From Desulfonatronum lacustre DSM 10312 (GTDB taxonomy: Bacteria > Desulfobacterota > Desulfovibrionia > Desulfovibrionales > Desulfonatronaceae), in NCBI RefSeq assembly GCF_000519265.1, contig NZ_KI912608.1, positions 571,665-635,664 on the forward strand: a DNA stretch of 64,000 bases. The letters run 5' to 3'. A program made the translations under genes and the position numbers. Below are positions 16,414 to 50,849 of the stretch, one piece after another; positions within the stretch are counted from its first letter, which is position 1, and the number at the start of each line of letters is the position of its first letter. Below the pieces are notes generated by a model that did no database searches, was not told the DNA's origin, and was given only the letters and a program-made list of their open reading frames with translations.

Positions 16414-16433
16414 AATGCGTCTCCAGGTTTAGC

Positions 16434-16580
16434 AGTCCGTTGAAAAACTCCCAATTGCTGCGTCGCTGCAAAAAGTTCAAACTCTCACGTATGAATAAAT
16501 ACGCTTCGACCTTGAACTTTTTTTGCTCCTTGCACTTGGGGTTTTTGAACGGACTGCCGGATAAGGACTTTTTCAACACC
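16434..16580 (+). repeat. Dispersed repeat family A, copy 1
   Basis: Begins AGTCCGTTGAAAAACTCCC. An internal inverted end, GTTTTTGAACGGACT, lies at 16541-16555, and a second outer arm, GGACTTTTTCAAC, at 16565-16577. Near-identical sequence recurs at 29671-29807 and, on the other strand, at 49044-49345. No open frame of its own. Confidence 0.85.
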
Positions 16581-16948
16581 CAGTTAGTGTGCGGCAATAC
16601 CGCTACCTTCATCATGCCGGGGAATCAAGCATGGCTGATGAGGATCCATTTCCGGCTTCAGGAAGGGCCGAAACGCGGCGGCCTGTGGCAGATCAAGGAA
16701 CTCCGCGTCTCCAAAATCCTTGAAACAGTTCCTTGTTTTCATCACTTCATGTTTTATTCAATGAAGTGGAAAAAGAGCCTCAAAAGGGACATTGCAGGTT
16801 GTTTCGTGTTGAGTCGTTTTTTGCTAAAAATCTCACAAATCTTATTCAACAGAAGTCTCTCCAGGCACCCCGCGTCTTCGACTTCTCCCATTCTCCCTAC
16901 GGGCCGAAAATAAAAACTGATCATGTCAGAATCACAATGGAGCTGCCC
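16581..16948. other. Non-coding stretch before the multi-PAS kinase
   Basis: About 370 bases, more AT-rich than the neighbours. The kinase frame is open back to 16733, but the extension has no recognisable domain or ribosome-binding site. No promoter stands out. Confidence 0.4.
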
Positions 16949-29645: not shown

Positions 29646-29670
29646 TGATCCTCTTGAGAAAACGGCTATC

Positions 29671-29807
29671 AGTCCGTTGAAAAACTCCCAATTGCTTCGT
29701 CACCGCAAAAAATCCAAACTCTCCCGTATCACAACTACGACCTTGAACTTTTTTTGCTCCTTGCTCTTGGGGTTTTTGAACGAACTGCCGAGAAGGACTT
29801 TTCAACA
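29671..29807 (+). repeat. Dispersed repeat family A, copy 2
   Basis: Begins AGTCCGTTGAAAAACTCCC and follows copy 1 closely through CCTTGAACTTTTTTTGCTCC and GGGGTTTTTGAACGAACTG to GGACTTTTCAAC. It sits upstream of the GltD-like gene start, between divergent genes. Confidence 0.85.
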
Positions 29808-29986
29808 TTCAGCTATCGTTCGATAATGAGACGAAATAGAGGCTGCTGGATAACCTACTCCTTCTTTGCTAGATTGCAAGGCTGTTGGCGCTATTGCGCG
29901 GTGAGCGGCCTGAGTGGAAGGATATGCGTCCTCTACGGAGCGGGCCGCCCGTAATCCCTGATCATAACCTCAAGAAGGAGATGCAA
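29808..29986 (+). other. Leader of the CMD-family gene with a possible stem
   Basis: Non-coding. GCGGCC (29905-29910) and GGCCGC (29943-29948) could pair around an inner AGGA/TCCT stem. AAGGAG lies six bases before the ATG at 29987. No known riboswitch was recognised. Confidence 0.25.
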
Positions 29987-32758: not shown

Positions 32759-32809
32759 AACCTTTCACAGCTCTGCCTATTGACAAATACTCTATTTTTT
32801 GATCAATCC

Positions 32810-32897
32810 TGACCCCTGACCCCTGACCCCTGACCCCTGACCCCTGACCCCTGACCCCTGACCCCTGACCCCTGACCCCTGACCCCTGACCCCTGAC
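32810..32897 (+). repeat. Tandem 7-base array (TGACCCC)12.6
   Basis: Twelve perfect copies of TGACCCC plus TGAC, without interruptions, ending 14 bases before the ATG of the ABC-F gene and so touching its ribosome-binding region. Perfect short tandem arrays tend to change length by slippage. Confidence 0.95.
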
Positions 32898-32911
32898 TTT
32901 CCAATAGAATT

Positions 32912-47200: not shown

Positions 47201-49000
<1,800 letters not shown>

Positions 49001-49043
49001 GGGGTGAAAATCCTTGCAGAAGAATGTGACAAGTAAAAGGTGC

Positions 49044-49345
49044 AGTCCGATCAAAAAAACACGTGTAAGGAGCAAGAAATGTGTAATTACTCAGCACATT
49101 ATGTGTCCGCTCCTGTTCCGGCAATCGGTGTCGGGGTCGCTATCGGTATCGGAATCGAAACAGAAAAATATTGAGCGCATCCCCGCATTATCGATCCCGA
49201 TCCCGATCCCGATTCCGACCCCGGCAACAGAATTACTCTGTGCTGAATAGGTACAAAATGTTTAAGATCGAAACGTATGTTATTGATACGTGAGAGTTTG
49301 AACGATTTGCAGCGACGCAGCAATTGGGAGTATTTCAACGGACTG
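49044..49345 (-). repeat. Dispersed repeat family A, copy 3, split by element B4
   Basis: Outer part 49044-49082 (AGTCCGATCAAAAAAACACG ...) and inner part 49262-49345 (TTAAGATCGAAACGTATG ... TTTCAACGGACT) together match the reverse complement of copy 1 in order, once B4 is removed. It begins directly after the hisS stop codon. Confidence 0.85.
49083..49254 (+). repeat. Hexamer-arm element family B, copy 4, inserted in repeat A3
   Basis: 172 bases; ends GTAATTACTCAGCACA and TGTGCTGAATAGGTAC, hexamer arms and an inner imperfect hairpin. Flanked by GAAATGT (49076-49082) and AAAATGT (49255-49261), a 7-base duplication with one mismatch. Confidence 0.85.
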
Positions 49346-50608
49346 CTACGCGCCGCCCGCCATCCGGTTCAGCAGATTCCCCGGCAGATCCGCTTCGGAC
49401 ACGACATATTGTTCGCCGTCGCGCATGTCCTTGACCGCCACGGTGCACTGAGCCGCCCCGTCCTCGTCCAGCATCAGGGCGAAGCGGGCTCCGGCCTTGT
49501 TCGCGGAGCGCATCTGGCTTTTCAGGCTGCGGAAGGCGTAGGGGAACTCCACGGAAAAACGTTGACCGCGCAGAACCTGGGCGATTTCCAGGGCTTTTTC
49601 CAGAAGGGTTTCGGCATGCACGGCAATGTACACGTCCACTCCCGGATCCGGCTGCTCCGGGGCCAGCATGGCCAGACGCTCCAGGCCGCAGGCAAAGCCG
49701 ATGCCCGATACGTCCGGGCCGCCGAGCTGTTTGACCAGACCGTCGTAGCGCCCGCCCCCGGCCACCGAGGACTGGGCGCCGATGTCCGTGGAAACCACTT
49801 CAAAGGTCGTGCGCTGGTAGTAGTCCAGGCCGCGGACCAGCAGGGGATTGAGCGTGACCTGGAGCCGGGAGCGGCCCAGCAGGTCCAGCACGGCGTCGAA
49901 ATGCACCCGGCAGGCGTCGCAGTTATGGTCCGTGATTACCGGCGCGCCCGTGGTCAAGGCCTTGCATCCGGGAACCTTGCAGTCCAGGACGCGCAATGGA
50001 TTGGTGGTTATCCGACGCTGGCAGTCCTCGCACAGGCCCGATTGGTCCACGTCCCGGAGGTAGTCATCCAGGGCGGCCCGAAACGTCGGTCGGCAGGCGG
50101 CGCAGCCCAGGCTGTTGAGCTGGTATTCCAGGCCGGTCAGGCCGATTTCCGAGAGAAAACGGTGGAGCATGAACAGCATGTCCACGTCCACGAGGTGGGA
50201 GGCTGATCCCAGAATTTCGACGTTGATCTGATGAAACTGGCGCTGGCGGCCCATTTGCGGACGCTCGTAGCGGAACATGGGGCCCAGGGTGAAGAACTTG
50301 AGCACCTCGTCCTGGCGCAACAGCTTGTGCTGGATGCAGGCCCGCAGTACCCCGGCGGTGGCCTCGGGCCGCAGGGTCATGGAGCGGCCTTTGCGGTCCG
50401 GAAAGGAGTACATCTCCTTCTGAACCACGTCGGTCTCGTCGCCGATGCCCCGCACGAAGAGTTCCGTGTACTCGATGATCGGCGTGCGCAATTCCCGACA
50501 GCCGTATCCGGCAAAGACATCCCGGGCCGTGGCTTCGATGGAGGTGAACAGGTCGCTTTTCGGCGAAAAAAGGTCCACGAATCCTTTGCCGCTTTGTATC
50601 ATGGTCAT
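49346..50608 (-). CDS. hisS: Histidyl-tRNA synthetase
   Basis: 420 residues from the ATG at 50608 (AAGGA upstream; a second ATG lies six bases in). Class II core with TLRPEATAGVLRACI (motif 2 region), GPMFRYERPQMGRQRQFHQ, histidine motifs LVRGLDYYQRTTFEV and AGGGRYDGLV, and the C-terminal anticodon domain. An internal cysteine group (GLCEDCQRR, CKVPGCKAL, HNCDACRVHF) is present in the insertion domain. Upstream of aspS in the same direction. Confidence 0.96.
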   Translation of the reverse strand: MTMIQSGKGFVDLFSPKSDLFTSIEATARDVFAGYGCRELRTPIIEYTELFVRGIGDETDVVQKEMYSFPDRKGRSMTLRPEATAGVLRACIQHKLLRQDEVLKFFTLGPMFRYERPQMGRQRQFHQINVEILGSASHLVDVDMLFMLHRFLSEIGLTGLEYQLNSLGCAACRPTFRAALDDYLRDVDQSGLCEDCQRRITTNPLRVLDCKVPGCKALTTGAPVITDHNCDACRVHFDAVLDLLGRSRLQVTLNPLLVRGLDYYQRTTFEVVSTDIGAQSSVAGGGRYDGLVKQLGGPDVSGIGFACGLERLAMLAPEQPDPGVDVYIAVHAETLLEKALEIAQVLRGQRFSVEFPYAFRSLKSQMRSANKAGARFALMLDEDGAAQCTVAVKDMRDGEQYVVSEADLPGNLLNRMAGGA

Positions 50609-50849
50609 CGTTTTTCCTTGAGGGGTGGGAACAACAAAAGCAGGCTGCAATGGGCCTGGAGTGATGGGCGGACCTTGGTCGAACCCGTCACCAGCGTCTC
50701 AAAAAGCGAAACTGAATTTTTTAGCGCAATCAAGGTAGCCTGTCAAAACAGCCCCATGGGCTTGTTTGCCCGAGAAATCGTTTCTGCTATCCTCGACGAA
50801 TCAAGCGAGCCAAGGATTAATAGAAGGCATAAACCAAGGAGACGCCAAC
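50609..50849 (+). promoter_or_regulatory. Divergent spacer with candidate mobB promoter
   Basis: TTGCCC (50766-50771) and TATCCT (50788-50793), 16-base spacer, point toward mobB. A short hairpin CTGTcaaaACAG lies just upstream (about 50741-50752). No molybdenum-cofactor riboswitch was recognised. Confidence 0.3.

What the first reader, a model, noticed from the sequence alone, without database searches (positions are those of the whole stretch)
49044..49345. Element B4 is nested inside repeat A3
The pieces 49044-49082 and 49262-49345 align in order to the reverse complement of repeat A1 when B4 is cut out. GAAATGT/AAAATGT flank B4 as an almost perfect 7-base duplication. This gives a relative age (A before B) and a second independent insertion event.
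Basis: seen in the sequence. Interest (0 to 1): 0.7.

Follow-up and report, generated by a model that had tools for sequence, protein, structure and literature searches.

The report
Old MITE inserted inside another MITE
Between two tRNA-synthetase genes of a Desulfonatronum bacterium, one small non-coding transposon (an IS66/ISBst12-type MITE) jumped into an older, unrelated small transposon; this really happened but is ordinary mobile-DNA history, and the same genome shows it twice more.

Summary
Window 49043-49345 is a decayed copy of repeat A (minus orientation). It is split by B4 (49083-49254), a full-length copy of repeat B. With B4 and one target duplicate removed, the flanks align as one continuous A copy: 87-89% identity over ~128 nt. 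All other genome hits with the joined flanks fell in the A family.

The flanking duplication is best read as the 8-bp B-family duplication AGAAATGT with one base lost on the right, not a 7-bp one. Of 76 paired B copies, 36 have perfect 8-bp duplications (chance 0.04%).

B is a non-autonomous MITE with ISBst12-group (IS66 family) ends; published ISDge4 ends match its TIR at 13 of 14 positions. A is a ~151-bp palindromic MITE with 4-bp NTAN duplications; its transposase was not found.

Two more B-in-A nestings exist in this genome, with both elements' duplications readable. The count fits random intergenic insertion.

"A before B" holds only for this pair. Both copies are old, and both families moved later: 16 A copies are 99-100% identical to consensus, and 39 of 74 B copies have a neighbour at >=97%. 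The five Desulfonatronum relatives read at this locus carry neither element. New member of a known kind; low interest.

The parts
49043..49082 (-). A3, 3' part (A's right-hand half on the minus strand), up to and including the 8-bp target sequence
   Evidence: score 38 vs A1, 0 of 2000 shuffles and 0 of 4935 window 39-mers reach it
49075..49082 (.). left copy of B4's 8-bp target duplication, AGAAATGT
   Evidence: sequence; 8-bp duplications typical of the family
49083..49254 (+). B4: full-length 172-bp MITE of ISBst12/IS66 type, TIRs GTAATTACTCAGCACA / TGTGCTGAATAGGTAC, long imperfect hairpin
   Evidence: fold z -4.9 / -5.8
49255..49261 (.). right copy of the duplication, AAAATGT (one base lost)
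   Evidence: sequence; removing it restores the A register
49262..49345 (-). A3, 5' part (A's left-hand half on the minus strand), ending at the terminal CAGTCCGTTG
   Evidence: 69 nt 94% complementary to A1; score 127, 0 of 2000 shuffles
49346..49349 (.). CTAC beside A3, contains the hisS stop codon (TAG on the minus strand); fits the NTAN target of family A, partner copy on the other side not recognisable
49346..50650 (-). hisS, upstream of aspS on the same strand
   Evidence: ORF, Pfam tRNA-synt_His
47201..49000 (-). aspS, downstream of hisS on the same strand
   Evidence: ORF, Pfam tRNA-synt_2 + GAD + OB fold
16433..16583 (+). A1, complete 151-bp A copy with duplication TTAG
29670..29812 (+). 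A2, complete 143-bp A copy with duplication CTAT

Best explanation
A3 is an old copy of a ~151-bp non-coding inverted-repeat element (MITE) that inserted, with a 4-bp NTAN target, at the hisS stop codon in the hisS-aspS spacer. Later B4, a 172-bp MITE with ISBst12-group (IS66 family) ends, was moved in trans by an ISBst12-type transposase into the right-hand half of A3, duplicating 8 bp (AGAAATGT). Both copies then decayed by about 11% from their family consensus, and the right duplicate lost one base. Shown: the nesting, full-length B4, and the duplication sizes of both families. Inferred: the transposase that moved B (from TIR identity, 8-bp duplications and a transposase remnant in a congener), and that neither element now has a function. 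Unknown: the transposase of A.
For: Joined flanks give one A copy, ungapped at the insertion point, and all other genome hits are A family. B duplications: 36 of 76 perfect, 11 with one mismatch, null 0.04% and 0.35%. A duplications: 20 of 36 perfect, null 4.4%, nearly all NTAN. Two further nested pairs show both elements' duplications: B 1192985-1193151 (B duplication GCTGTTCG; A duplication CTAA) and B 499422-499602 (CACC[C/T]AGA; A duplication ATAG). B TIR GTAACTACTCAGCA versus ISDge4 of the ISBst12 group, GTGACTACTCAGCA / GTAACTGCTCAGCA with 8-bp repeat, active transposition (PMC12898284). In congener G001 an IS66 transposase remnant (PF03050) ends beside AATGCTGAGTAGTTAC, whose first 13 nt read inward equal B's TIR. 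In G097 a PF03050 gene lies beside GTAACTACTCAG. A complete 2.6-kb IS66-family element with GTAACTTCTCAATAGT ends and 8-bp duplication is in G025.
Against: No IS66 transposase is detected in this genome, so the mobiliser is inferred from relatives. A3's own target duplication is not recognisable on its aspS side, and A3 lacks the last ~25 bp of the long A form. No sister genome keeps the intermediate state (A3 without B4).
Confidence: 0.95

Rival explanations
1. A3 is not an interrupted copy: two separate A fragments happen to flank B4, for example after recombination or two insertions.
For: The left piece is short (39 nt) and decayed; short A fragments exist elsewhere in the genome.
Against: The pieces are in the right order and orientation, meet in exact register once one duplicate is removed, and are bounded by a duplication of the size typical for B. 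Two more nested pairs have both duplications readable.
Confidence: 0.02
2. B recognises A as a preferred landing site (a MITE that homes to another MITE, or to hairpin DNA).
For: Three B copies lie in or at the edge of A copies, all in the right-hand half of A, and no A copy was found in B.
Against: 3 is not unusual for 80 B copies and ~66 A copies sharing the intergenic space: expected 1.1-2.1, P(>=3) 0.09-0.35 (intergenic fraction assumed 10-15%). The three B duplications AGAAATGT, GCTGTTCG and CACCYAGA share no motif.
Confidence: 0.05
3. The composite has been taken up as a regulatory or RNA element between hisS and aspS.
For: B4 folds well on both strands (z -4.9 and -5.8) and lies between co-oriented hisS and aspS.
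Against: No terminator- or promoter-like site, no Rfam family at its threshold, ~11% decay of both elements, absent from relatives. The fold follows from B being a near-palindrome.
Confidence: 0.04

Closest known systems
ISBst12 group of the IS66 family (e.g. ISDge4 of Deinococcus geothermalis, PMC12898284)
   Same: TIR GTAACTACTCAGCA matches the two ISDge4 ends at 13 of 14 positions each; 8-bp target duplication.
   Different: B is ~170 bp, non-coding, with inverted GATCCC/GATACC-type hexamer runs; no IS66 transposase in the genome.
Bacterial MITEs (review PMC10969869)
   Same: Short, non-coding, TIR-bounded, target-duplicating, high copy, intergenic.
   Different: None in kind; these two families were not found named in the papers searched.
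Insertion sequences with 4-bp TA-centred duplications (IS5 group, IS701; from memory)
   Same: Family A has 4-bp NTAN duplications.
   Different: No DDE_Tnp_1, DUF772 or DDE_5 transposase in this genome; A's parent is not identified.

Membership tests
MITE derived from the ISBst12 group of IS66 (element B) | TIR beginning GTAA and ending TTAC, of the ISBst12 GTRACTRCTCAGCA type | tested here: met
   107 + 109 TIR matches genome-wide vs 5 + 4 for the reversed control; ISDge4 ends
MITE derived from the ISBst12 group of IS66 (element B) | 8-bp target site duplication | tested here: met
   36 of 76 perfect, 11 with one mismatch; null 0.04% and 0.35%
MITE derived from the ISBst12 group of IS66 (element B) | short and without a transposase gene | tested here: met
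   B4 172 bp; no ORF spanning it
MITE derived from the ISBst12 group of IS66 (element B) | IS66-type transposase with the same ends in the same genome | tested here: not met
   PF03050 absent; a remnant with matching end in congener G001, related elements in the order. Usual but not required of MITEs
MITE derived from the ISBst12 group of IS66 (element B) | mobilised in trans by an ISBst12-type transposase | not testable with these tools
   needs a transposition assay
MITE (element A) | TIRs, fixed-size target duplication, high copy, non-coding | tested here: met
   TIR CAGTCCGTTGAAAAACTCC / CTGAGTGTTGAAAAAGTCC; 4-bp duplications perfect in 20 of 36; 66 merged A places in held sequence
IS5 / IS4 / IS701-type parent of element A | matching transposase gene in the genome | tested here: not met
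   PF01609, PF05598 and PF13546 have no match in the own genome

The most novel reading that the evidence does not exclude
Two high-copy MITE families stay mobile in a genome with no detectable partner transposase, served by ISBst12-type and other transposases that pass through on mobile DNA and are lost. The same B-type ends also enclose unrelated interiors (e.g. 1651335-1651487, duplication CAGCAAGA), so the ends alone may suffice for mobilisation.
Probability: 0.3. Interest if true: 0.35.

Novelty: new member of a known kind. Interest (0 to 1): 0.15.

Why it matters
It is a clean case of transposon-in-transposon nesting with both duplications interpretable in sister cases, and it assigns an abundant Desulfonatronum repeat (B) to a transposase group by its ends. 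The biology is otherwise ordinary. Its practical use is for annotation: nested copies order single insertions, not families.

Tried and rejected
Uninterrupted A3 in relatives: none found. G005, G001, G003 and G004 have short spacers; G007 has a different insertion.
IS66 transposase in the own genome: absent.
DDE_Tnp_1, DUF772 and DDE_5 as A's parent: absent in the own genome. Scanning all held loci for A-type ends 600-3000 bp apart with identical 4-bp duplications: none.
A 1.7-kb candidate for A's parent at 2525404 turned out to be a host-type DUF3089 gene between A-like pieces.
A and B in plasmid records: no A match; one 34-nt B match, taken as chance.
Rfam: only sub-threshold matches (mir-3718 27 bits against a gathering score of 78), explained by the hairpin.
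L005 as a further nested pair: its left flank is not A and it has no duplication.

Full report
WHAT WAS CHECKED. The window lies at 571665-635664 of a 3.76-Mb single-contig genome. A relative with 97% AspRS identity is Desulfonatronum sp. CSSed162cmB_308, on a contig of the same 3603-bp length as G007's, so the genome is most likely a Desulfonatronum. The finding sits in the spacer between hisS (49346-50650) and aspS (47201-49000), both on the minus strand, confirmed by Pfam.

THE NESTING IS REAL. The left flank of B4 (49043-49082) and the right flank (49262-49345) are both family A, inverted and in order. Against A1 the left piece scores 38 (best of 2000 shuffles 25; best of 4,935 window 39-mers 26), the right piece 127 (28) and the joined flanks 168 (34). 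The alignment passes the B4 insertion point without a gap. In the whole genome the joined sequence finds only the A family besides itself, best 89% over 128 nt.

THE DUPLICATION IS 8 BP. Family B copies carry 8-bp target duplications: of 76 copies with paired TIRs, 36 are perfect and 11 differ at one position, against 0.04% and 0.35% for mismatched pairs. For B4 this means AGAAATGT (49075-49082) on the left and AAAATGT (49255-49261), one base short, on the right.

TWO MORE NESTED PAIRS. At 1192985-1193151 a B copy with perfect duplication GCTGTTCG lies inside an A copy flanked by CTAA on both sides. At 499422-499602 a B copy with duplication CACCCAGA/CACCTAGA lies across the right end of an A copy whose own duplication ATAG is restored when B is taken out. 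Among 80 B and 66 A places in the held stretches these three are the only nested pairs, and no A-in-B was seen. With 10-15% intergenic DNA assumed, 1.1-2.1 B-in-A cases are expected by chance and P(>=3) is 0.09-0.35; zero A-in-B has P 0.09-0.20. No targeting is needed.

WHAT B IS. TIR GTAACTACTCAGCACA, about 216 TIR matches in the genome against 9 for a reversed control, near-palindromic with hexamer runs. The ends and the 8-bp duplication are those of the ISBst12 group of IS66: ISDge4, observed to transpose, has TIRs GTGACTACTCAGCA and GTAACTGCTCAGCA and an 8-bp repeat (PMC12898284). In congener G001 a PF03050 transposase remnant ends next to AATGCTGAGTAGTTAC, equal to B's TIR over 13 nt; in G097 a PF03050 gene lies next to GTAACTACTCAG. 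Intact relatives with GTAA-type ends and 8-bp duplications exist in the order. The own genome has no PF03050 match. So B works like, and by its ends belongs with, ISBst12-group MITEs; trans-mobilisation itself was not tested.

WHAT A IS. A ~151-bp element (longer 208-250-bp forms exist), TIRs CAGTCCGTTGAAAAACTCC and CTGAGTGTTGAAAAAGTCC, 4-bp duplications almost all NTAN (20 of 36 perfect, null 4.4%). Related sequences occur in several other genera of the order. Its transposase was not found. A3 abuts the hisS stop codon (CTA at 49346-49348), which fits an NTAN target, but its own second duplicate is not recognisable.

RELATIVE AGE. The order A3 then B4 holds for this pair. It does not order the families. 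A3 is 88.5% and B4 89.0% identical to their consensus, both among the more diverged copies, while 16 A copies are 99-100% identical to consensus and 39 of 74 B copies have a neighbour at >=97%. Relatives G005, G001, G003 and G004 have neither element here and G007 has another insertion, so A3 and B4 were probably gained in this lineage, or lost in G007.

FUNCTION. B4 folds strongly on both strands, as expected of a near-palindrome. No terminator- or promoter-like site and no Rfam family at threshold was found. I consider the composite neutral debris; an effect on hisS-aspS read-through is untested.

Noticed in passing
G000:C1:1192958-1193275 (L083, L029) and 499337-499620 (L093): Two further B-in-A nested pairs with both elements' target duplications readable.
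   Followed up: yes
L082 1179645 and 1180016, L084 1245823, L087 1651335-1651487, L085 3296523, L086 3666730 (genome coordinates of G000): The same GTAACTAYTCAGC ends enclose a different interior, a CGGGAATCCAG / TGGATACCCGC hairpin repeat; one copy has a perfect 8-bp duplication CAGCAAGA.
   Followed up: partly
L137 805-2483 (G000:C1:2525404-2527082): A-like pieces flank ~1.4 kb with a complete DUF3089 lipoprotein-like gene, a possible cargo or insertion within A.
   Followed up: partly
L132 4320-4425 (G000 near 3153330) and L084 near 1480-1590 (G000 near 1243500): Runs of N (100 N in L132) fall inside A copies; the single contig appears to be scaffolded across A repeats.
   Followed up: no
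G007 contig C87 (L062), hisS-aspS spacer: The sister species has a different inverted-repeat insertion here (GTAACAACTCAGC...CCCGCGAAGGCGGGAATCCAG), so this spacer took insertions at least twice.
   Followed up: partly
window 32794-32905: Tandem CCTGACC repeats in a spacer, seen in the repeat table.
   Followed up: no
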